DNA of 64,000 nucleotides from contig JADIIU010000024.1 of assembly GCA_027603945.1 (NCBI GenBank), positions 62,001 to 126,000 on the forward strand. Reading direction: 5' to 3'. The notes beneath the pieces were generated by a model. That model was not told the DNA's origin. It made no database searches and saw only the letters and a program-made list of their open reading frames with translations. Positions 14,516 to 28,117 of the stretch are shown in pieces. Position 1 is the first letter of the stretch. Every line of letters begins with the position of its first letter. Source of the stretch: Terramyces sp. JEL0728 (Eukaryota > Chytridiomycota > Chytridiomycetes > Rhizophydiales > Terramycetaceae). Both the position numbers and the translations under genes were made by a program.

Positions 14516-17500
14516 TTACTTGAAAAATTCAGTCTTCCCCTTATTCCCTGATTGTTGCAGCTTCACTGTTGATTTCGTAATATCCACAAGATCGTGGGGG
14601 TAAAGTCGATGGTAAACCCGTAATCCAGCCATTATGCTTGGATTGCTAGTTTTGGGGCCTTGATACCACTGTCTTTTAGGTTTTAAAGAAAAATGTTCTT
14701 TTGCATATAATGTTTGTGAAAATCTGGACTTTATAGGAGCTGCTGATGAAACAGTGCGCTCTGGAGCTCTTATATTTGGTTTGGATTTAGCATCATCTTC
14801 TTTGCTGCCGCTTTTGGCTCCTTTGAATTTATTGACAAACTTTTTCAGATTGTTGGTTCCCATTTCAGCAGTGACATCCCACGGATATAGCGGGTGGATA
14901 TAGGTGGTAGGATTTCCCAGTTCCCATAATTCCATTTGCCCCAAAACACCAATAAACTCGCTTGTGAACTGCTGTGAGTTATGACTTACTAAGAATAGCC
15001 GAACTGTGCAATCAACTGATGCCGTCATGATTATATTTTGTGATTCAATGTATTCAATGCAATTGATTGCCGAAATGTGTGCTCTATACGAATGAATCAA
15101 TGAAAGTGTATTGTTTGTTAATTCTTTAGAGTATGAATATCCTACATCGTTTATATCAAAGATGCTGACATATCCGCTGACATCTCCAGTGATCAGCAGT
15201 GTATTTGCTGCATTAGTTTGAATTTCGTAAATCGCTTCCTTCCTCCCCATCGAGCCATCTACTTCTAGCTGGAGCTCTCCACTATCCACGTTCCAAAATC
15301 TTATTACACCATCCCCACCACATGTAAGCAATGTTGCCGCGCCAGCACTATTCACCCGTTCTTTCAGGAATAGCACTATTTCAGAACCGTAATACCTTTG
15401 TCTATGGTAGTTTTTTGGACTGAAAATCCATTGGCTGGGTCAAAGACTTCGTAAATTTTAAACTTTTGGATTATGTGCCCGGAATTTAAGTTTGTCACAA
15501 AAATCTCTCCATTATATGATGAACTAGCTAAAAAGCAGGGCTCGCAAAATGCTATTGACACAATATCATCAGTGTGCCATTGAGATTTTGAGTTGGATGG
15601 ATGGGGCCAGGTGTAGCTAGGATATAATATTGCGGCATTTGGATCGTCGGCAAACATGTTAATTTTTCTTTCCCAGCCAGTGGCGATAATATACGTTAGA
15701 TCTTTAATGCTGATATACTTGATTAAGTAAAATATACCGCCAAACTTGTTACTTCGGAATTATCTCCTTTTATCAACTCTTGAAGCAATTCCCCATTGTT
15801 GTAGTTCCACACTCTAATGGTGCCATTTCTTCCCCCTGTTATCAATCGTCTTCCACAGTCGTCCATGAGCATTGTAGTTATTTCGCTGCCACCATGAGTA
15901 TTGCCAAATTGAAAGGTTTTTTGCCCAGAGAATATATCCCAAACATTTACTATTCCTCCGTCACATCAATGTTAAAAATAAATTACCCAGTAATGATTTG
16001 TTGGAACGTTGCATTGTAAATAACTCCCCGAACGGGAAAGTCATGACTTTTCGGGTGGTTTTTGGTGGCATACCTGTCATTTATCATATACAAATGGATC
16101 GTGTTTGATGCCGTAACTATTCTACTGTCCAGCGGGTTGAATATAACAGTAGAAAGTTGATCGTCAGGTCTCTGTCGATCAGTATTTGAAATTGTTTGAA
16201 GACACACCTGCTTTCGTATATCCCATACTTTCACTTGTTTGTCAAGTGAGAGTGAGATTATTTGACCGCTCTTATCGTTCACGGAAATTTCGGTTATTGG
16301 AGAGGAGTGACCTTTCAAAATTGCCATTGGATGCTCTAGGCGATGTGGATTCCAGAGTCTAATTTGTCTATCTGTGCCCCCAGTCACAATGGTAACTGGA
16401 AACCGGCAATATGCAAAGGAGTTTACCCCTTTGTTGATGGGAGAAATGTGGTACTGCCATTTATGATTATTATCAAGCTCGGCTACCACTAAACTTTCTT
16501 TAGGGTCTGGCGAGCATGATATGATGGACTTAATTTCTGGTATGTATCGAACTTTCAGTACCCAATCATTATGGGCTTTTCTTTTCCACACAGATCCCAA
16601 GTGCTTTAACAACTTGGACCCTTCTTTTTCGATGTAGATTCGCTCAATCTGTCCTTTTTGTCGAACTGCAACTTTAATCATTTTGTCATCATCAAATGTA
16701 AATACATTTACGTGTCCTGAATCAGTTCCGTATATCAACATGCTCTTTGGTGAAATTTGAGTGTCCTTCATGACATAGTAATCTAATGAAAGAACATTGG
16801 TATTTTGTAGATCCAAACACAAACACTTTTCCATGGTAGTTGCCTCTAACTGTTATTTGGTCTTACCATAAAACGTTATCTGGTGGTCATCAGTTGCCAA
16901 CGCTATCTTTTGTAAATTATCCATGTACACGGCATCATGCACCCATCGGTACGGTGTTCCTTCAAATATTGGATCGACAGTTACATCGAGCTCTGATTTT
17001 CTCTTTTCTGCTTGCAGTTGCCTGGATTAATTAGAGCAGGTACCCAACATTTAAAAAAGATCTTTGAAGTTTGAAGTTATCATTCCAATAGCATATCGTT
17101 CCGTCTCTACAACAGGTCATATATCGTTTTTGCGATGAAATATATTGTATTCTGATAATCATTTCTTTGTGTTTGGTATTAATTTTATTATTTCTATCAG
17201 TGGTGTCAAACAGTTTCATTTCAGCTGCTTCCACCATTTGTTTTTCGCCCTCTGCACGAAGCAGCATGTAGGTACTGAAATCGTCCCAGTCGATTTGATT
17301 ATCTATTTAACAACAATAGAGTACCAGTATTGGCATCAATCTTCATAAATATTGCTGTCATCTGATCATCTGTTTGGCCCTTTCCTAATACAGTAGCAAA
17401 AGCTTGTTTGAAATCATCCATGCTAATCATCCCCGTTTGCTTATCAGCTGACGCCTTTCTCAATGAATAAATACCTGAAATATCGAAAGTAATTCTTTAA

Positions 17501-17675
17501 AATGAGACAGATTCATGTCTCTTTCCGCTCTGTAAGTGGCTGTATCTTTGACTATATTCACTTTATCAGTATTTGCATGGTATTTAATTATTCTGGCTTC
17601 TCTCGAGGAGCTAATCTTCACATTCTGAGGAGATTTTCCTGATTTTGTGTTCATTGAAAAATTTTTGCCTGACAT
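14516..17675 (-). CDS. EF-hand WD40 protein, WDR49/WDR64-like
   Basis: 1004 residues after removing seven introns of 20-22 nt. An N-terminal EF-hand region (loop DANTDNQIDWDDF, rebuilt across a splice near 17300) precedes a long WD40 array: YMTCCRDGTICYW, VTGGTDRQIRLW, SLSLDKQVKVWD, ITGGRNGTIRVWN, LTCGGDGVIRFWN, TASVDCTVRLF. The C-terminal tail (FSLKPKRQWYQGPK) is basic. EF-hand then about a dozen WD repeats is the WDR49/WDR64 layout, a group largely restricted to ciliated lineages. One intron (15967-15986) can only be removed with a TG acceptor. Start chosen at the ATG at 17675, not the GTG just upstream. Confidence 0.85.
15967..15986 (-). other. Non-canonical 20-nt GT...TG intron in the WDR49/64-like gene
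   Basis: The intron reads GTAATTTATTTTTAACATTG. Removal joins IITG to CDGGIVNVWDIFSG, completing a WD repeat; the next AG dinucleotides downstream give the wrong frame. It keeps a TTTTTAAC branch-like element and the usual 20-nt size. Confidence 0.75.
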
Positions 17676-17965
17676 CACACCTCACATAATTCCTCAATTT
17701 TAACTGGAAACTCATAAATAATTCACACTCCATTCACTACCACATCCCATTTTGCATAGCATATAATACTTTCCACATACTTTATTCGTGTGCACACTGC
17801 CTTGACTGTGTTTTTACGAATGAATATAGATAGGTTTGATCCAAGTAAAGGTGTCCATTCTCCTGGGCATTTACTTCTGGGTGACACAAAGAGTACGATA
17901 TATTTGCTACTGCAGGCTGCTCACGAGGTTTCTCCATAGTGGATTCAATCATATTAGTTTCTACG
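17676..17965. other. Spacer between WDR49/64-like and RhoGEF genes
   Basis: About 290 bp holding the promoter of the WDR49/64-like gene and the 3' flank of the RhoGEF gene, both on the minus strand. Nothing else recognisable. Confidence 0.4.
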
Positions 17966-19327
17966 TCAATCAGCTAGTTTACCTATTTCATTTATTGTGC
18001 GATCTTTCAATTGCGACACACATTCATCCAACAAGGTATCACTCTTCCTGAATTCATTTTGGGATATACTCTCCAAGTTTGAGTTTTCGATATGAGTTGC
18101 TTGACTATTGTGCGGCAGGTAGTATAACTGTTTCTGGTCAATTTGGTGAATATCAGCAGCATCGAAGGAATTGCTTGTATCTTTGTTGTGCTTTCTTAAA
18201 ATTGGTGGCTGTTGTCCTCCATTACATATTGATTTAATCAGTAGATCAGTTGCAGTTTTAATTTGCTGAATCCATAATTTCTGTTCTTCTATCGAGCTGG
18301 ATATCAAAACCATTTTTTGACTACCTCCAATAATTAAATTGAACGCACTCTTTTCTGGTGTTAGTGCAGCTTTACTGTCATTTTCTTTACATTCAGATAT
18401 GGTAATATTAAGGAGGGAAACCAGATCTAGTAGGACGAGTTTCTCTGATTTTTTGACTGGCTTGCAAATGAGAATGTAGTCTGATAAAAGTACTATGAAA
18501 CGAATGGAGTGCGAGTTATACAAAGATGGTTTACTTTTGAGAACTGTCCCGTGATAGATTAATGTCCTATTAAATGAGGGATAAAGGTGAAACTATATAA
18601 ATTCATGGTTACATTCTCTCCAAAAATTATGTTTCCCAATAAACCGTTCATTGCCTTTGTTCTATCCTCGTTAATTCCCCTCTGTTCGTTAATAAATCTC
18701 AAAATTGCTTGAAATTTCTGATCGGCTTGTGCTAGACCTTGATGGTCAACGTGATACTCTGGGGTGTACTTCATAATTTCTCGAATGAGCAAAGGATATT
18801 TGCATATTCTTTGAATTGGCTTTAACAAATATGATGATAAATCCAAGCCTTTGCATTTTACGGCACAAATCTGAATCAGTACCACTTCTTACTCTCGTGA
18901 ACTGCATAAAATTAACATCATTGGTTTTCATTTTAATAAACTGCATTGCAGTGGAGTGATTCGAGCAGTATTTTTCATATCTCATGAAATTTTTGCACGG
19001 CGTGAATAACAAATTACTTGAGATAGGAATACTTTTGACACATACAACAATATCCCTTTTCCTTGATTCCTTTGTTTTTCCAGTGCATTTAAAAATGCCA
19101 ATGTTAATGCAGAGTTACTTGACTAATAAATATAATTTCGTTTATATTTGAAAATACCGTTTCTCTCTCTGCTTGGTCCAAGATTTCCAATTTTTTGAAT
19201 CCATTGTGGTATAACAGCATAAGAAACAAGTTACCTCCACCACTAGATTGAGATCATTTATATATTCTTTTTCTGTGTCAATTAACTCTGATATAACTTT
19301 CTGCCGTTTCTGTTCTGTGTCATTCAT
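17966..19327 (-). CDS. RhoGEF (DH-PH domains)
   Basis: About 416-419 residues. DH domain opening VISELIDTEKEYINDLNLVVE, continuing VFSNINEIIFISQAFLNALEKQ, and the conserved helix LSSYLLKPIQRICKYPLLIREI; then a PH domain (HGTVLKSKPSLYNSHSIRFIVLLSDYILICKPV). It should exchange nucleotide on a Rho-family GTPase, acting on actin. Five introns are needed. Two (19215-19234 and 19099-19118) fit only with TG acceptors. A third is ambiguous: either 29 nt ending AAG (19017-19045) or 20 nt ending CG. The last two are ordinary GT...AG. ATG at 19327; the frame upstream begins with GTG. The C-terminal 80 residues have no known domain. Confidence 0.85.
19099..19118 (-). other. Non-canonical 20-nt GT...TG intron in the RhoGEF gene (second intron)
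   Basis: The intron reads GTAACTCTGCATTAACATTG. Its removal joins NEIIFISQ to AFLNALEKQR within the DH domain. It shares TTAACATTG with the TG intron at 15967-15986. No AG in the right frame nearby. Confidence 0.75.
19215..19234 (-). other. Non-canonical 20-nt GT...TG intron in the RhoGEF gene (first intron)
   Basis: The intron reads GTAACTTGTTTCTTATGCTG. Splicing joins LNLVVE to LYHNGFKKLEILDQAERETVF, giving a gap-free DH helix. No AG acceptor exists in the next 30 nt that keeps frame. Confidence 0.72.
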
Positions 19328-19462
19328 AGTGATTATTGTGTCAAATTTTACAATGCATTGTTTGTGCACTTTACCAACATAGGAACAGCACGAACCACAG
19401 GTTTTAATTGAAGATTGTTCTATTTACAAATGTATTTTAGTTTGACAGTTTATTTAAAAGGT

Positions 19463-21287
19463 CTAGGCTTCATAAATATGTTGCAACTCGTTTAAAGTAT
19501 CTCTAATAACATTACCCAATTCGCCCCCCGCAGATAGTTCACTCAATATCATATAGGCGTTTTCAAATTCTTGCTTGCACTTCTGGCTTTTTATAAACCT
19601 AGCATTAGTTGGCTATCTCCCTGTCCTCCAAATTGAAATCAAGAGACTGCCTCCCATCCGCAATATTTAACGTTGATAGAATGATATCGCTAAATGATTT
19701 TGACAGCAAAGTCAGTGTGTTACAAGACAGCTTGATATACCTATTTTAAAAATCCCTTACTCTTCATACATTTCAAATAGCATTTCACTGAGTAGGGGTA
19801 TGAGCATGGAGCATATTTCAAGGGTAAGCAACTTTGGCTTACAAACCAACATACGAAGAATATCTGCAACCACACCGGTTTCGCGAATTTCGACTAGTTG
19901 TGCAATTGAAACTCGTATGTCTTCTTCATTCCACACGCTTCTTATACTGCGTATATTCTGTAATCTTGATGTCATTATATTTAGCACTGAAGTGTGTCTA
20001 AAGTTCAGACTGTCCAAAGCATCGTCAATAGTTTTCAAGCTATTTCCAGAACTGATTAACATTGGCTGAGAAGGTTTCCCAGGAATCTTGCGGTGAATAA
20101 GTGACATACCTGCTTGATAAATGTCTGCAGATCCAAGTTCAACACCTTTGAACCATCAGGACTGGGAATATATTTAAATTTCTTTGACAATGCCTTTGAT
20201 TGAACCACAGGTTGCTGCACCTCATTCAGTCCCAGATCCTTAGTTTCTTTTGTAATGATTCTAATCTGCTGCTCCGTTGGATCCGCTATTGCTGTGACTT
20301 TTTCTTCATAATCATCACTGTTAGTAGGAATATCGGATATCTTGAATCCCCAAACATCAATAAACGGTCCATTAACTGTGCAAGCTATTGCTTTATCAGT
20401 GTCTGGCAACACTTTGATATCTTTGACATTTGCCCATTTTGCTGGCATTTCATCCACAAGGGAAATTGGTTCCCAAGTCAAAATCTTACATTAGCCAATA
20501 TCTACCTGGAGCGAGTCTTGTGCGGCAGCCAGTAAATTTTGCCCATCTGGGGTAAATATGATCTGTTCCGAGTATGATTCTTTGTAAGACGAGATCAATT
20601 CAAAATTCTGTAAATCATACACCCGAAGATATCCATCCATCGAGCAAGATGCGATTATAAATTCTGAAGGATTAAACGAAATCGAATGAATCGGCCCATC
20701 TGCGTCTGCAATGGTGTGCAACAGTTTTCCTGCTGTCATATCCCAGATCAATGATTAGTTTAGGTTTACCTTTACCGTCCCATCCTCACTTCCAGAGGCA
20801 ATCCATCTTCCATCTGGAGTGATTTTTAGAGAATTGATTCCAAGATCGTGTCCGTGATATGTTTGAATACATCCTTTCCTTCTCACATCCCATATTTTTA
20901 GCGATAGATCAGCAGACCCTGACGCAAAGAATTCTCCAAATGGATGGAATTCTACACTTTTGATATTTGATCTATGTCCCGCTAACGTTCTAATTACTTT
21001 TGCTTGTTCCAAATCCCATAATTTCAAACTACCGCCAGCTGAACCGGCAACTACGAGCTCTTCTGGCCAATCTAGCGCTACCGACTCTACCTGGGTTACA
21101 TGTCCAGATAAACTCTATTATTAAGCCCAAATACAAGTATGCTCTTTTGTTTTCCAATCGCCCATAGATTAACGTTGCGGTCCTGTCCCCCGGTCGCCAT
21201 TACTCGTCCTGATTTCGGTCCTATTTTTGCACACGTAGTCTTCATTGCGTGTGCATTGAAGGACACTATTTTCTGAGATTTCACCAT
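19463..21287 (-). CDS. KATNB1: Katanin p80 WD40 subunit B1
   Basis: 566 residues, six introns. Seven WD repeats at the N-terminus (FNAHAMKTTCAKIGPKSGRVMATGGQDRNVNLWAIG..., SADLSLKIWDVRRKGCIQTYHGH), then a linker and the con80 domain (RHTSVLNIMTSRLQNIRSIRSVW...). This is the regulatory subunit of the microtubule-severing enzyme katanin, targeting it to centrosomes/basal bodies. Two introns are unusual: 20749-20769 ends in TG (joins DGTVK to IWDMTAGKLLH), and 19599-19617 appears to start with GA. With both removed the gene is a whole number of codons. ATG at 21287 is clear; the 3' end at 19463 follows LNELQHIYEA. Confidence 0.93.
19599..19617 (-). other. Candidate GA...AG intron (19 nt) in katanin p80
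   Basis: The intron reads GATAGCCAACTAATGCTAG. It has an ideal ACTAAT branch element and TAG acceptor but GA where GT is expected. Removal joins NLEDRE to FIKSQKCKQEFENAY in the con80 domain. A 22-nt GG...AG alternative gives nearly the same protein. Without splicing a stop follows at once. Confidence 0.6.
20749..20769 (-). other. Non-canonical 21-nt GT...TG intron in katanin p80
   Basis: The intron starts GTAAACC and ends ACTAATCATTG on the minus strand. Its removal gives DGTVKIWDMTAGKLLHT, matching the consensus end of a katanin WD repeat (TVKxWDxTAGK). There is no AG at a frame-compatible position. Confidence 0.82.
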
Positions 21288-21371
21288 TGGTAAAAGTCAA
21301 CAAAACTTTGCAGCACTGCATGTCAAACGGAATATAGATTTATTCCAAAAGTTTCAAAGTCAAAATAGAAT

Positions 21372-22112
21372 TTATTGTAGTAGCTTTGGGATATTATCGG
21401 CAAACCAAGCCCCATCATCCTTCTGGTTGATATCTGGCAGACCAGACACAAGCTGTTCGCTAAATATCCCAGATTTTAATCTCATCTGTACCAAGGCATT
21501 TGTATACGCAGCCTTAAATTCAGGATGTCCTTGGATGGTAAAGTATTTGTGGGGTTTATACATGCTCTGTACTGGTGATAAATCCGTGGATCCCAACACA
21601 ACAAATCCAGGAGGTACTTGAACTACATGGTCTTTATGCATAGACTGAATAGCAATCGCATCTTTTGATAACAGTTTTCGCCCTTGGTCATTCAGGGTTA
21701 CAGAAATCCATCCAATCTCCCATCCTTTGTCGTTGGGCTTAACTGAATTAATTCCATATACCCTTTCCCCCTAAGGCTTCCGCAATGATTTGGTGTCCAA
21801 AACACACTCCAATGAACTTTACCTGGCTGTTATCGTGGTCTTTCACGAACTGCTTTAACTTTAAAATCCATGGAAGGTCTTCGTAACATGAATATCTTGA
21901 ACCAGAAATGATAAACTGATCATATTCCATTGGATTAGTTGGATATTCTTCTTTGGTAACATCAAACGCATCCAGTTTCCCAAACAAATCCGAAAACATC
22001 TTTGCTAAGGTTAAGTATGGTAACCATAATCTCCATGGACTCCTACCAACTCGTCTGCTGGGCGGTCCTGGTGTTAATTTCATTATACACACACTAAAAG
22101 CCCAGTTTTCAT
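21372..22112 (-). CDS. Class I glutamine amidotransferase-like protein
   Basis: 226 residues, introns of 21, 20 and 19 nt. Starts MKTGLLVCDRPADELVGVHGDYA. The nucleophile elbow GVCFGHQIIAEALGGK holds the catalytic Cys (about residue 98), and the triad His-x-Glu is in IQGHPEF. No second catalytic domain is present, so it belongs to the stand-alone GMP-synthase-like amidotransferase or peptidase group (YLR126C-type in yeast). The true acceptor of its amide group is unknown. It lies 37 bp from the stop codon of RAB3GAP2. Confidence 0.9.
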
Positions 22113-22149
22113 TTTGGAGAAAATGAATCTGCAAACGAAATATAAATCT

Positions 22150-25100
22150 TTACTTGTATAAATCAAACCATTTCGCCATCAAGCGGGCATCGTTCATGTG
22201 CACTTTGGCAAGTTGCTGCACGAATGAATTCCTTTCCGCAACCACACTTTATCAGTTTATATTACCTATCTGATTGCTTTTCATTCAAAACCGTTTCACA
22301 TATACAAGATTCAAATTGCTTCAAATTGGTAAAGTATCGTTTTGGATGTACCAGCTGCAACTCGTTGGAATACGTGAATTTCAACACATGGAGCATACTG
22401 ATGTAATCAACAACTGAATTGCTAAGTTAAAATCGTAGAACCATGATACGGCAAGCTCGTTAGGCAGCATCATTGTCAAATCACCAAAAAATGAATCAAA
22501 ATAAGCAGATTCTGTTTTCTCTGTTAATTTCTGCGAAATATCAATTGGATGCAGTATTGTCTGACATTGCTGCAACGGCTTTAAAATTTCTATGCAAATA
22601 TCAATTAGTCGAATAGAAGTTGTAACTAAATCAACCACCGGCTACCTGAAAACTTTGCAAACCGCTTATTTACAGGCTCTTTGGGTTTACCATGTAATTT
22701 TTCAATCATTTCTATGTGGTCATGCAATTGGTCTTTGATTCCAGCTTGAAATACACATGCGATACAGTATTGCAGTTCCGAATCTTGGATTTTAACATAG
22801 TACATCAGTATCTTGTCTAGACAATCTACTTGATTAGTTGATTTCCAATTTCCAAATTCAAACCAAATCAAGTATGCAACAATAATATCACTTGAAAGGG
22901 AAATGTTGATGTCAATAGCCGTTTTCTACTTTAAAGTAATATTACTGCAATGAACTCTTCAAAATCGTCAACTGAGGATATTTGTATGTATTTGGCGACA
23001 AGGTAGTTAAAACTGCATGTTTCCTTCTTCCATTAGGTGAGCTTACCTTCAAAAAATCAAGTAGCTTTACTCTACAATTCCCTTGCAAATACTTGTAAAT
23101 TTGAATGCATTGGGGTGCGTGCTCCAAGACTTTGACTGCCTCCTCAGACGGATGGCTGCTTGAATTTTTTATTGCTAGTGCAATCCAGTAAGCAAGGACT
23201 GGGTTATAGACTTGTTTCATCAAATCTGCAACTTGTGATTGCTGATCACTGTTCAACAGATAATAACTTGATATTAACAAAAAGTTATTTTTGGTATGGA
23301 CGCTTATCCCATCAAAAGAAATGTATTCATCCAAATAGCGGACTAGAAATACCTATTATTACCAGCAAAATTACACACAAATCGTAAACATCCATTCGTA
23401 GCCCATCCAATATGCTTGAAAGATTATTTGGGCGAATTCTATCCAGCAAAAACCCAGCCAAGTCGGCTACAGAGGACTCTTTCGCACCAATGGTAAATGG
23501 TGCAATTTTAGAATCATTAGCACGCTCTGACCAAGCCGGATTGACCGAAAAGGATCGTATAAACGTTAGGTAACCGATCTGTGATTGCGGGTTGGTTGTC
23601 TTGTATTCATTACTGATCATTTCATTAATCCACTGTGGATAGCTGTCTTTCTGATCAACATCCACCGCCATTGATTCGTATAGCTTAAAGAAATGCAGGT
23701 ATTTGATCATATTTAGTTCAACAAAGTTATATTCCACATTTGGATTCTCCAAAATATTCGGGATGTATTCCGTAACTGGTAATAGGATATTTTTGAATGC
23801 TTGGAAAGGAAAACTGTCAGAAAATAATTCCAAGGCCTATGTCAGCACGGTTTACTTTGAGTTTAATACTCATTGAATGCAAATTGGATAAATAGTTGAC
23901 GATTGTTTCTGTAGATTCACGAATGTTTTGATCGGTTAACCCATTAATCAGCCTCTTTAAATCTTTAAATTCGTTGGGATGTTTCCTACATTTAAAGTTT
24001 GTTACAGTTCTACAGTAATATTTATGCTTTTCAAATCGCCACTGGTAGCCAATAGATAGCACTGGGAATTAAATCTATTTGGTTCTCCTTTCCAGTGCAT
24101 TCCTCCGATAATGGACGCTGGTGTATGAACGAGCTTTAATCCTTTTCCGACATTCATCGCGCATATCCTTGCACAATCTGGTATTGAATGGATCTCCAGG
24201 ATACCAGTATTCCCATATATTACCAATAACTGGCTCACAATAGTAGGGTCAGTTTCATTGGAAATCTGTATCCATCCAAGTTGCGCATCTCTAATTCCTT
24301 TCCAGATAGAAACAATTGTAGCATCAGAAGTGTCATACAGTAAGACTCGTCCTAAATTGTCGGATACTGCGCAATAGCCCCCTCCAGGTTGAACTGAAAT
24401 ACGTACTGCACTTCGATTTCCATCTTCAATAGTACATTGTGCATTTAGCTGAGTTGGTCTGAAATTTGTTGATGGATTATCTTCTGCAGCACCAATGTTC
24501 AGCAATGATTTCGCATAAGAAAATACCGCACTAAGTTAACAATGGCTACGTTGACACTTCCGAGGATTTGTTTGCCACCAGCCCAGCCAAAGAGTATTTT
24601 GGCGTTGCTTCGGAGCTTAAATACATTGCGATAAAAGGATAACCAACCCCAACGAATCTCGCGGTCAGATTTGGCTGAGTGATAAGCTTCCCTGATACAA
24701 TATCATAATCAAAATCAAAAATATTTGATTCTTTGGTTGGTCCCAGGCTAACTACGTTCATTATGGTTTCTTGCCCGTACAATAAATATTTCTTGAAAAT
24801 CAAAGGAAATGGATCAAAAGTGAATAATTCTAAATGAGCGTAATCGAACCTTCTGCCGTATTCATTTTAAAGGTCATCCAAATAGACGCTGCATCCACGC
24901 AAATTACAAGATGGTCAACATTAATTCATAAATACCACTGTAGTAGATCACAAGCTCTTCAATATCGTCTTCGCACGCCATTGCCTTGAAAGCGATCGAC
25001 GCTATTGCTGATTGCCTAAAGTTTTGGCTTATTACACTCTCCCCCTTCTCATTATATATTCTGAAATTTCCATTTGAATATCCAATTATCAGACAATAGA

Positions 25101-25451
25101 TAAATCTAACATAAGTCCAAGATACTGTTCTTTGTTGTTCGGCATATACAGCGCAGTACACAGAATACAAGTAATGGTTTCCTTCTCTGCGGCAATGCCT
25201 TCCCCTGTCAATTGGAATTTATTTCCATTTCTGGTATATATTGAAAATTTGTACGCAGTTGCACACGCTAAATGATTGCCATCCAATCCGACCGATACAA
25301 ATGTAAAGTTGAAGCTGTTCAATATAAAATCCATGGAATCCACACTTGCTTGGGACCCAGGCTTGATATCTCTCTCCCAACTATCTTTAATTTCTACTTC
25401 CAGAATGGTGCTTTTCTTTGCCTCAATTTTAGCAAATCCACAGATTTCCAT
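22150..25451 (-). CDS. RAB3GAP2: Rab3 GTPase-activating protein non-catalytic subunit
   Basis: 1021 residues, twelve introns (17-22 nt), all but one GT...AG. N-terminal beta-propeller-like part with ETITCILCTALY, IIGYSNGNFRIYNEKGE, VQPGGGYCAVSDNLGRVLLYDTSDATIVSIWKGIRDAQLGWIQ, the strongest family signature (GRVLLxDxxxxxxxxxWKGxRDAQxGW). The C-terminal helical part ends ERNSFVQQLAKVHMNDARLMAKWFDLYK. It should pair with RAB3GAP1 as a Rab GAP/GEF for membrane traffic and autophagy. The intron at 24915-24934 ends TG; that at 22398-22414 is only 17 nt. Start at ATG 25451. Confidence 0.88.
22398..22414 (-). other. 17-nt intron in RAB3GAP2
   Basis: The intron reads GTTGTTGATTACATCAG, GT...AG with a TGATTAC branch-like element. 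Removal joins NLAI to HMLHVLKFTYSNELQL and keeps the frame into a convincing C-terminal exon. The shortest intron I can support here. Confidence 0.65.
24915..24934 (-). other. Non-canonical 20-nt GT...TG intron in RAB3GAP2
   Basis: The intron reads GTATTTATGAATTAATGTTG. Its removal joins EELVIYYS to DHLVICVDAASIWMTF, the expected next beta strands; no in-frame AG is available. Branch-like element AATTAAT. Confidence 0.75.
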
Positions 25452-25490: not shown

Positions 25491-28117
25491 CTAGTAAACT
25501 ACTTTTTTATTATTACAGGTTAAACATTGGAATAAATTGTCTGCTTGGAACCACAGCGGCGATTGTGTTATCTTACAGATACTACAAGCTTTGTCTGATT
25601 CCAATTCATCCAAATGTTTAGATTTCTTCAAGTGGCAATCGCAATGGTCTAGCAATCCTTGGGAATATGCTCTCTTCTGGCCTCTGCCAAGTAGCGGCGG
25701 ACTGCACTTGTGCTCAATAAGTTCAGAAATTAGCTGAGGGACAACTGTGGTGGTCTTGGCACTTTTTCTACTGTGTTGGGAACAATACCCTCCAACTTCA
25801 ACCTTGTTTTTAATGATTCGAACAAATAAGTGGTTGGTAGAGAGTCTCATCTGCGAGCAAGTGACATGGAAATACGAATTACAAACTCTTTCTGAGCATC
25901 TGATTGTCGCACCACCTCGTTGTTTACAGATTGAACAAACCTTTTTTAAAATCCTTAATACCTGTACCCAATTGACCTGATCTATTAAACCAATACATTC
26001 AATATATTCCAAAGTCGTTGGGTTCCCAAACTTTATCTGTGGAATCCAAATAGCACATTGACTGTGTGCCCAATCAGTTCCAATAGTCTTTTTCAAAGGT
26101 GAAAACCTTGCGTCTATTTCTAAAGTGCATAAAACGCACTGCGGTATCTAATATTAACATCAACTACTAATTGCGGGTCAGTTTTGGCTTTGAAAACACA
26201 AACATCGCATCTATATTGACCACTGCCTTCCAAGTCTTTGTGCGATACGCCGTAACATGCTGAATTAGAGATATTTACAGGTATGGACAGTGAGGTGGCA
26301 ATCAACACATTTAACATGTTGAAAACTGGAGCTCTCCAATGGATCCTTGCAAACAGCACATATTTTGGAATTTCCATAATTTGGTTGATCGTTTGCTGCT
26401 TTAGTAACAAATACCTTCCCTTGATGGCTTTCTTTCGTGTTCACTTAAAGGTTTCTTTGTGCCATACTTTAGCCAATACTTTCTACAAGAATCGCAGTGC
26501 ATTATAGCACCAACAGGAAGTGGTTTGCGAAAGTTTGCAGAGTTTTTGGTAAAGCAATTTGTGCATTCCAACTCTTCTTCGTCGCTTTCATGCACTGCTT
26601 CCTCATCTGAAGTATCAATATCCATCTCTTTTAGTGCTGGTGAGTTTTCCTTTTCCGAATCGTCATTTTGCTTATACTTGTCGGTATAGTCCTCTTTGAA
26701 CATGTAGTAGTATAATATAACGTCCTTTAAGGTTTTATGATTCAAAAACTACCATTAGCATGCGAATACTTCTTTTTGAATCCAGTATAGATCCTGATTG
26801 TATTTCACTATGCCCGCATCCATAGCAGCCTGGTCAGCACTTGACCAAGTTGGCAAACAAGAGAAATCTTGTGGATGTGTTTTAATGTGATTGAATGTAT
26901 TTTCTTTGTTGCAATGGAATTCGTGTAAACATTGTGTTAGGGCATCTACAGCTGTGGAATCCAGTTTCTCAACATCCAAAATTGTTTTACACTCTTCCAA
27001 AAACACATCCACTAAGTCAAAAATAGATTACAATCGCAATCGTCTGGAAGATAAAACACACATTCATCAGTATTATATCTGTCTACTGTTCCTTCCTCTG
27101 CCAGTTCATCCTTGGCAGTTGGATCAAATGGAGTTGCATCAGCTTGATGTTCTTTCCCCAACCTACTATGAGCTTTTGGGTATCCTCTCATTACATCATT
27201 AGCTATAGTTAAAAAAAATTACTAAGCAGGTCAGCAGAGTTGGAGTATTCGCCAAAATAATAGAACGGGAATTCTGGTAGTTCTTGGTCAGTATTTTCTA
27301 AGATCAATCATTTAAAAACCTTCTAAATTTGCCGCCTCCATATTGATTGCATCAGCACTAACAGTTTTGCGGAGTTTTTTCACATTTCCAGTAACCGGTT
27401 TCTGCTGACACACAGAACACTGCCAGGAGTGGACCTTTGGCCGTTTCCTTTCCAGTCCAACACAATCAGTATGATAGGTATCGCTACAGCCCTATGTTTA
27501 ATATTAAACTACTTCGCATTGCACCACTGACTCTCCAATGTTACACCATCCATCACAACTTGGGCAAATTCTCTTGAACAAAAACGTCTTTCCCTTCCCT
27601 TGTTCCACCAACAGGTATTTGTAGTTCCGGATATGACTTTGGACTTTTACTGGTAGATTTGCCGCTTTTTCTATGGGAATCACATCGTATCTTCTTTTTG
27701 TATACCTGCCATTAAGAAAGAATACCTGTCGTAAACTAGAATAAGATAAATACATACGCTGGCTAAAGTAAAAACAGTCGTCCTGCTTTTTGTATTTCTC
27801 CAGATCTTTAATGTGATCAATGTGCATTATGGTCAATTTGCCTTTAATTGCCGCTATAGGATTGTAATCTGAAGACATGGTTGCAAACACTACCCTGGGT
27901 TTCGTTCTGGTTGATATTTCATGCTGTCTGGTGTACCATGCTACTCTTACAGTACTTTGAACCAAATTAATCGCCATTATCCTTCCTATATAATAACTAC
28001 GTTAGCTGAACTATACGGAGAGTTGGGTTCTTCCGGGCGTAAATATACAAAATCTAACTTAGACAGAAATATACCATCGATGTTGTATGTAATTCCCTTC
28101 CTAACAAAAGATGTCAT
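25491..28117 (-). CDS. SNT2: BAH/PHD/SANT/extended-PHD chromatin protein, Snt2-like
   Basis: 812 residues, about nine introns. Order: BAH domain (KLDFVYLRPEE ... VRVAWYTRQHEIS), first PHD finger (CPSCDGWCNIGESVVQCEGCSDTYHTDC), ELM2-like stretch with PDDCDLDVFLEEC, SANT domain (WSSADQAAMDAGIVKYNQDLYWIQKEF), two Cys4 motifs (CTNCFTKN...CDSC), second PHD (CAVCKDPLE), extended PHD (CVLCTLEIDARF...CSICKQRGGATIRC...FHVTC) and a GATA-like C-terminal finger (CSICKITQSPLWFQ). This is the fungal Snt2 layout, a histone-binding partner of Rpd3 and Ecm5. The 5' splice joining BAH halves (26 nt, near 27980-28005) is the least certain. Only 39 bp separate its stop from RAB3GAP2. Confidence 0.85.

What the first reader, a model, noticed from the sequence alone, without database searches (positions are those of the whole stretch)
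15967..24934. Five GT...TG introns in four neighbouring genes
At 15967-15986, 19099-19118, 19215-19234, 20749-20769 and 24915-24934 (minus strand), only a TG acceptor restores frame and domain continuity (WD repeats in the WDR49/64-like protein and katanin p80, DH domain of the RhoGEF, RAB3GAP2). Two share the ending TTAACATTG. All keep the usual size, GTAA/GTAT donor and branch-like element. With them removed, katanin, RAB3GAP2 and WDR49/64 are all whole-codon. This suggests the acceptor may be chosen by distance from the branch point, with AG not strictly needed: a relaxed 3' splice rule. GT-TG introns are very rare elsewhere.
Basis: partly seen in the sequence, partly recalled or inferred. 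Interest (0 to 1): 0.9.

Follow-up and report, generated by a model that had tools for sequence, protein, structure and literature searches.

The report
Tiny fungal introns ending in TG
A chytrid fungus whose introns are almost all only about 20 letters long appears to end roughly one in thirty of them with TG instead of the near-universal AG, which would make it a natural place to study how strictly cells must obey the splicing rule.

Summary
All five sequences are present (the fifth lies at 24916-24935, one base off), and in each a 20-21 nt stretch GTA...TG must leave for the frame to continue. Homologues support four of the five junctions residue by residue, WD-repeat profiles the fifth. 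The window is contig C24 of a 15.0 Mb assembly; protein hits identify it as the chytrid Terramyces sp. JEL0728.

In 344 kb I modelled 182 genes with 604 tiny introns: 559 end AG, 20 TG, and no other dinucleotide exceeds 5. Outside the window TG is 15 of 471. Eighteen of the 20 TG introns are required by at least 3 nats each, 14 by more than 6, where no other non-AG ending remains. These 18 share the donor, branch motif and branch-to-end distance (5-6 nt) of AG introns and end YTG.

So this is a recurrent minor class, about 3%, not five accidents. U2AF35, Prp18, Slu7 and Prp8 (one domain searched) are present, so loss of these factors is not the cause. My reading: branch-proximal exon ligation escapes proofreading and tolerates UG. 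No RNA was available; splicing itself is inferred.

The parts
15967..15986 (-). 20-nt GT-TG intron in WDR49/64-like WD-repeat gene (phase 2); branch TTAAC; junction QQIIT|GCDGGIVNVWD
   Evidence: 10.1 nats on its own; several WD-propeller Pfam profiles span residue 535, one over its curated cut-off (PF24817, residues 400-566)
19099..19118 (-). 20-nt GT-TG intron in RhoGEF (DH-PH) gene (phase 0); branch TTAAC; junction FISQ|AFLNAL
   Evidence: 9.5 nats; ungapped with Globomyces P0122; Pfam RhoGEF profile 1-180/180 spans it
19215..19234 (-). 20-nt GT-TG intron in the same RhoGEF gene (phase 0); weaker branch CTTAT; junction LVVE|LYHNG
   Evidence: 3.9 nats; ungapped with P0122; inside the RhoGEF profile match
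20749..20769 (-). 21-nt GT-TG intron in katanin p80 (phase 0); branch CTAAT; junction EDGTVK|IWDMTAG; retained it reads into a stop after 4 codons
   Evidence: 4.8 nats; five homologues of other species cover the junction without a gap (KIWDMTAG or KLWDMTAG), and the two public Terramyces models end or start there
24916..24935 (-).
   Evidence: 3.0 nats on its own; aligned with two vertebrate RAB3GAP2 with one single-residue gap a few residues downstream of the junction; the public Terramyces model retains it and then drops over 100 residues; the Boothiomyces model breaks at the same place
18998..19017 (-). candidate 20-nt GT-CG intron in the RhoGEF gene (GTAATTTGTTATTCACGCCG); single case
   Evidence: 4.9 nats; ungapped with P0122
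14516..17675 (-). gene: WDR49/64-like EF-hand and WD-repeat protein, 997 aa, 8 introns
17782..19327 (-). gene: RhoGEF (DH and PH domains), 466 aa, 7 introns of which 2 TG and 1 CG
19463..21287 (-). gene: katanin p80 WD40 subunit B1 (model 19605-21287, C-terminal piece 19463-19552)
22150..25451 (-). gene: RAB3GAP2-like, 1020 aa, 12 introns of which 1 TG

Best explanation
Terramyces sp. JEL0728 has almost only ultra-short U2-type introns (18-23 nt) in which the branch adenosine lies mostly 5-6 nt before the intron end. About 3% of them end in (Y)TG. The spliceosome selects donor and branch site in the usual way; the 3' splice site is read at exon ligation, where the first suitable G within reach of the branch is docked. 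Because the 3' splice sites here are branch-proximal, exon ligation probably bypasses the Prp22-dependent proofreading that rejects non-AG sites in yeast, so U instead of A at -2 is tolerated, while C and G mostly are not. TG introns then arise by point mutation of YAG and persist. Shown: the TG endings, the frame need, the branch distance, the specificity for T, and the presence of the main 3'-site factors. Inferred: that splicing occurs at TG in RNA, and the proofreading-bypass mechanism.
For: Census AG 559, TG 20 of 604, next GC 5; 15 of 471 outside the window. Replacing each TG intron alone by AG-only models nearby costs 3.0-23.9 nats in 18 of 20, 4.5 or more in 16, over 6 in 14, where no other ending remains. 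Allowing introns of up to 90 nt keeps 20 of these 20. Reading through meets a stop after 1-47 codons in all 18. Planted control: of 200 AG introns whose end a script changed to TG, 179 were recovered exactly, 156 with 3 nats or more; spurious TG nearby 3, other spurious non-AG 6. Branch A 5 or 6 nt before the end in 18 of 18 TG and 498 of 559 AG introns; -3 is T 14, C 4. Alignments cross TG junctions without a gap in prolyl-tRNA synthetase (two junctions), dynamin (46), Pol III RPC1 (47), CHD1 (48), RhoGEF (two), katanin (23). Both U2AF35 zinc fingers keep human-like residues, Prp18 continues into its conserved loop region, Slu7 is an open model from ATG to stop, Prp8 PROCN matches 2-407 of 407, a partial Fyv6/FAM192A match is over its cut-off. 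Passages: loss of Prp18 or Fyv6 in yeast opens branch-proximal sites including UUG (PMC10711555, PMC11651659).
Against: No RNA evidence. Two of the 20 TG calls are weak (0.7 and 1.3 nats: an alcohol-dehydrogenase-like gene and Ku70), two more (in the window, 3.0 and 3.9) are moderate, and two alignments (APC2, Ku70) have gaps next to the junction. In 5 of the 18 better cases the next AG downstream (+9 to +27) is in frame, including RAB3GAP2, so a longer AG intron is not excluded there by frame alone. No TG intron among the 18 is 19 nt long against 144 of 559 AG introns (Fisher p 0.0099), which the simple picture does not explain. In the planted control AG-to-CC introns were recovered almost as well (164 of 200), so the method finds any ending, and single non-AG, non-TG introns of 3-5 nats exist (CG 2, GC 2, AT, CC, TT). 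The snRNAs were not resolved. Sampled stretches are 2.3% of the genome and not random.
Confidence: 0.8

Rival explanations
1. Assembly or base-call errors (A read as T), or a damaged allele chosen in the assembly of a diploid.
For: The assembly comes from one isolate and no reads were available.
Against: Errors or random mutations should give GG or CG about as often; at 3 nats or more TG 18, CG 2, GG 0. About 3% error at one base is hard to square with 182 largely open gene models (88,769 codons). A second public contig of the same isolate (4,367 bp, protein P0003, 99% identical) gives a katanin model that starts at the first ATG after the same junction, as expected if that copy also lacks AG (inference). 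In Boothiomyces the public RAB3GAP2 model breaks at the same point (inference).
Confidence: 0.05
2. The real introns are longer and end at the next downstream AG, so the proteins lack a few residues.
For: The next AG is in frame in 5 of the 18 better TG introns.
Against: It shifts the frame in 13 of 18; conserved residues just after the junction (IWDMTAG in katanin, the stretch around GNIGGSRSHEYH in prolyl-tRNA synthetase) would be lost or damaged. A model that may use AG introns of up to 90 nt still prefers TG in 20 of the 20.
Confidence: 0.07
3. Any dinucleotide serves; the cut is made at a fixed distance from the branch.
For: Single introns with other endings have 3-5 nats of support, e.g. 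the CG intron at 18998-19017.
Against: AG in 559 of 604 and a clear excess of TG over every other non-AG ending; the distance itself varies from 4 to 7 nt in AG introns.
Confidence: 0.06
4. TG introns are slow or regulated: mostly retained, spliced only in some stage, as a switch on the gene.
For: Retention would truncate the protein in all 18; non-canonical sites go with poor splicing or low expression elsewhere (PMC3879977 and PMC7072748, passages).
Against: The genes named so far are unrelated and mostly housekeeping (Pol III, dynamin, a prolyl-tRNA synthetase, condensin-like), with no common theme.
Confidence: 0.15

Closest known systems
TG 3' splice sites in human U2-type introns (Szafranski et al. 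2007, PMC2374985; abstract and passages seen)
   Same: U2-type donor with TG acceptor
   Different: In human they were found only as alternatives next to an AG site; the paper states that constitutive TG acceptors are not found. Here no AG partner is needed by the gene models, the introns are 20-22 nt, and the class is about 3% of introns.
TG or CG acceptors in BOC1 introns of the alga Micromonas (PMC3879977; passages seen)
   Same: Small introns with TG or CG acceptors; 34 reported, most with EST support
   Different: BOC1 introns are described as lacking a discernible branch motif and belong to one low-GC chromosome region; here a clear branch motif (mostly YTRAY) sits 5-6 nt from the end, TG far exceeds CG, and TG introns occur on all three contigs sampled.
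Branch-proximal non-AG sites in yeast lacking Prp18 or Fyv6 (PMC10711555, PMC11651659; passages seen)
   Same: Non-AG sites including UUG used close to the branch point
   Different: There it takes loss of a second-step factor, and AUG, ACG and UGG are used as well; here Prp18, Slu7 and a Fyv6 match are present, and CG/GG are not favoured.
Ultra-short-intron genomes: heterotrich ciliates (15-16 nt; in Stentor Slu7 and Prp18 listed as not found), mikrocytids (16-17 nt), a reduced genome with 18-21 nt introns (the chlorarachniophyte nucleomorph, name recalled) (PMC9505925, PMC10245619; passages seen)
   Same: Uniformly tiny introns
   Different: This is a fungus that keeps Slu7 and Prp18; TG endings were not mentioned in the passages I saw.

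Membership tests
U2-type spliceosomal intron | GT (or GC) donor with GTA/GTR consensus | tested here: met
   20 of 20 TG introns begin GTA
U2-type spliceosomal intron | branch motif YTRAY (or a near variant) upstream of the end | tested here: met
   of the 18 better-supported TG introns 13 have YTAAY, 3 TTAAA, 2 CTTAY
U2-type spliceosomal intron | AG at the 3' end | tested here: not met
   TG by definition; no AG between branch and end in the listed sequences
U2-type spliceosomal intron | removed from mRNA | not testable with these tools
   no transcript data held; only frame and homology
TG-AG tandem acceptor (human type) | a nearby AG acceptor used in alternative splicing | tested here: inconclusive
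   next AG at +7 to +62, frame-shifting in 13 of the 18; alternative use cannot be seen without RNA
Prp18-deficient type 3' site relaxation | loss of Prp18 or Slu7 | tested here: not met
   Prp18 and Slu7 genes found and open
Prp18-deficient type 3' site relaxation | sites branch-proximal | tested here: met
   branch A 5-6 nt from the end in 18 of 18

The most novel reading that the evidence does not exclude
In this chytrid lineage the shrinking of introns to about 20 nt has moved nearly every exon ligation into the branch-proximal, proofreading-free regime, so that UG has become a legitimate, constitutive 3' splice site used in several hundred introns (18 cases in 344 kb scale to roughly 800 in 15 Mb), some shared between genera.
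Probability: 0.5. Interest if true: 0.75.

Novelty: new variant of a known kind. Interest (0 to 1): 0.6.

Why it matters
The AG at intron ends is among the most constant signals in eukaryotes, and the human work concluded that TG cannot stand alone as an acceptor. A fungus with hundreds of TG acceptors, the main 3'-site factors in place and uniformly tiny introns would let one test directly whether branch-to-acceptor distance sets the need for AG and for proofreading. It also matters for annotation: the public models of this isolate are broken at these sites in the three genes I compared (katanin, RhoGEF, RAB3GAP2).

Tried and rejected
Pattern counting without gene models (GTA, YTAAY, any trinucleotide) does not show TTG above background (14 against 10.7 expected), so the case rests on frame and homology. 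A model with a free donor (prior 0.94 for GT) gave GT 590 of 609, GC 6, others 3 or fewer: the relaxation is on the acceptor side. Clustering of five TG introns in 9 kb has a permutation p of 0.028, but the region was chosen because of them, so I do not claim a cluster. My first margins banned every non-AG intron in a 3-kb stretch, so neighbouring introns shared a margin (e.g. RAB3GAP2 5.3 there, 3.0 alone); I replaced them by single-intron margins, which are the ones reported. The 3-nat line was drawn after seeing the margins. U6 search gave two hits below the cut-off; the one read does not look like U6, so U6 is unresolved; U2 and U5 were not searched. FAM32A gave no hit, but rang in no control either, hence uninformative. 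The 18S rRNA search did not complete. The organism name comes from protein hits on a contig of the same length, 140,349 bp, not from a marker gene. Rfam on the window: no match. Literature searches on this organism, chytrid introns or TG/non-AG acceptors (listings, with passages of nine papers seen): no listed title reports TG acceptors or 20-nt introns in Terramyces. The paper I recall as describing this isolate's genome is not held. Rows dropped before counts: gene models under 200 aa and the lower-scoring of overlapping models. Homology was looked at for 13 of the 20 TG junctions with a match reaching or adjoining the junction (five in the window; ProRS two, dynamin, RPC1, CHD1, NIPA, APC2, Ku70); for others Pfam gave nothing at the junction or was not run.
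Full report
What was checked. The five sequences were read out of the window. A gene finder written for this purpose (codon-pair model, donor, branch motif, length 17-24 nt, and a free last dinucleotide re-estimated from the data) recovers all five as introns of 20, 20, 20, 21 and 20 nt.

Where it comes from. The window is G000:C24:62001-126000 of a 15,016,339-bp, 231-contig assembly. The katanin product matches a public protein of Terramyces sp. JEL0728 on a contig of 140,349 bp, the length of C24. Terramyces is a chytrid fungus, order Rhizophydiales.

How common it is. In 344 kb (104 kb of C24 including the window, 140 kb of C1, 100 kb of C2), 182 gene models of at least 200 aa carry 604 introns: AG 559, TG 20, GC 5, AT 4, TA 3, and 2 or 1 of nine others. 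By place: window AG 124, TG 5, other 4; rest of C24 AG 44, TG 0, other 5; C1 AG 133 and 57, TG 3 and 4, other 4 and 1; C2 AG 201, TG 8, other 11. With a flat prior on the ending, TG remains the second class, 24 against 18 for AT and 16 for TA, so some weaker non-AG calls are noise. When introns of up to 90 nt are allowed, 593 of 612 are 17-23 nt: this fungus has almost only tiny introns. All 20 TG introns survive that test; five further TG calls appear, two of them 78 and 80 nt, which I do not trust.

How solid single cases are. For each non-AG intron I forbade it and every other non-AG intron within 60 nt and took the loss. TG: 23.9, 13.6, 13.2, 12.8, 11.2, 10.3, 10.3, 10.1, 10.1, 9.7, 9.5, 8.1, 6.5, 6.4, 4.8, 4.8, 3.9, 3.0, 1.3, 0.7 nats. 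Others at 3 or more: TT 5.0, CG 4.9, GC 4.9, AT 4.3, CC 3.5, CG 3.1, GC 3.1. Above 6 nats there are 14 introns, all TG. As a control the ends of 200 real AG introns were changed to TG in the script: 179 were recovered exactly, 156 with 3 nats or more; 3 spurious TG and 6 other spurious non-AG introns arose nearby; changed to CC, 164 of 200 were recovered. Corrected for this sensitivity TG would be about 4% of introns.

Homology. Katanin: five homologues of other species read KIWDMTAG or KLWDMTAG straight across; the public Terramyces model (P0001) stops at EDGTVK and jumps, and the model from a second, 4,367-bp contig (P0003) begins at MTAGKLL, just after it. RhoGEF: Globomyces P0122 aligns without a gap over both TG junctions and the CG junction, and the public Terramyces model (P0121) starts after all three; the Pfam RhoGEF profile matches over its full length. 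RAB3GAP2: the public model retains the intron and then drops over 100 residues; my model aligns with vertebrate RAB3GAP2, with one single-residue gap a few residues after the junction; the Boothiomyces model skips about 22 residues from exactly this point, which suggests, but does not show, a non-AG acceptor there too. WDR49/64-like: several WD-propeller profiles span the junction, one over its cut-off. Elsewhere: prolyl-tRNA synthetase (two TG introns), dynamin, Pol III RPC1 and CHD1 align without a gap across the TG junction to solved structures; APC2 and Ku70 have gaps next to it and decide nothing. NIPA is spanned by its Pfam profile; the profile matches of the condensin-like and HEAT-repeat genes do not reach their junctions, and three further proteins had no Pfam match.

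What TG introns look like. Donor GTA in 20 of 20. Of the 18 at 3 nats or more: branch A 5 nt (10) or 6 nt (8) before the end, -3 T 14 and C 4, lengths 20 (13), 21 (4), 22 (1). AG introns: 4-7 nt, 5 or 6 in 498 of 559; length 19 in 144 of 559. The absence of 19-nt TG introns (p 0.0099) is unexplained. Branch scores are slightly better in TG introns (p 0.024), which may be selection by the method. Retained, each meets a stop after at most 47 codons. The next AG downstream shifts the frame in 13 of 18.

Machinery. U2AF35 is present by four exon-wise hits; in the two pieces fetched both zinc fingers, read across tiny AG introns by eye, keep CSR (human S34) and the CRQYE...CTRGGFCNFMHLK stretch (human sequence recalled); the middle was not read. 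Prp18, once a 20-nt GC-AG intron is removed by eye, continues into its conserved loop region. Slu7 is an open model with three AG introns. Prp8 PROCN matches positions 2-407 of 407. A partial Fyv6/FAM192A match is over the cut-off. So loss of these second-step factors is not the cause, in contrast to Stentor, where Slu7 and Prp18 are listed as not found (PMC9505925, table passage).

Mechanism. In yeast, 3' splice sites near the branch point are suggested to need Prp22 less and to escape its proofreading; without Fyv6 or Prp18 such sites, including UUG, AUG, ACG and UGG, are used (PMC11651659 and PMC10711555, passages). Here the sites are 4-7 nt from the branch A. I infer that nearly the whole transcriptome works in this regime, and that UG is tolerated while CG and GG remain poor. 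That U can replace A in the contact made by the -2 base is a structural guess.

Known relatives. Human TG acceptors were found only beside AG (PMC2374985). Micromonas has 34 TG or CG acceptors in small introns, most with EST support (PMC3879977): so TG acceptors outside the human tandem setting have a precedent, and the present case is a new variant, not a new kind. In a survey of 130 fungi all combinations other than GT-AG, GC-AG and AT-AC average 0.257%, though one species, Meyerozyma guilliermondii, reaches about 13% (PMC7072748); that text does not contain 'GT-TG'.

Verdict. The decisive missing piece is RNA.

Noticed in passing
window 19599-19617 (minus): The last katanin intron appears to start GA (GATAGCCAACTAATGCTAG, 19 nt) or GG: the C-terminal exon seems to join in frame only so (EDRE|FIKSQKCKQEFENAY, read by eye; a GG-AG variant with 0.6 nats). 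A single non-GT donor.
   Followed up: partly
whole genome sample, 344 kb: A chytrid fungus in which 593 of 612 modelled introns are 17-23 nt long; I found no report of such short introns in fungi in the listings.
   Followed up: partly
L031 (Prp18 gene), about 1790-1809: The Prp18 gene itself seems to carry a 20-nt GC-AG intron (GCAAGTTTTCTTTGATCTAG, by eye); GC donors are about 1% (6 of 609).
   Followed up: partly
window 25513-28117 and 22150-25451: Public annotation fuses the PHD-finger gene and the neighbouring RAB3GAP2 gene into one protein (P0136, 1519 aa), and so does the Boothiomyces model (P0137); my models keep two genes.
   Followed up: no
18 better-supported TG introns, C24, C1 and C2: None of the 18 TG introns is 19 nt long although 144 of 559 AG introns are; unexplained.
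   Followed up: no
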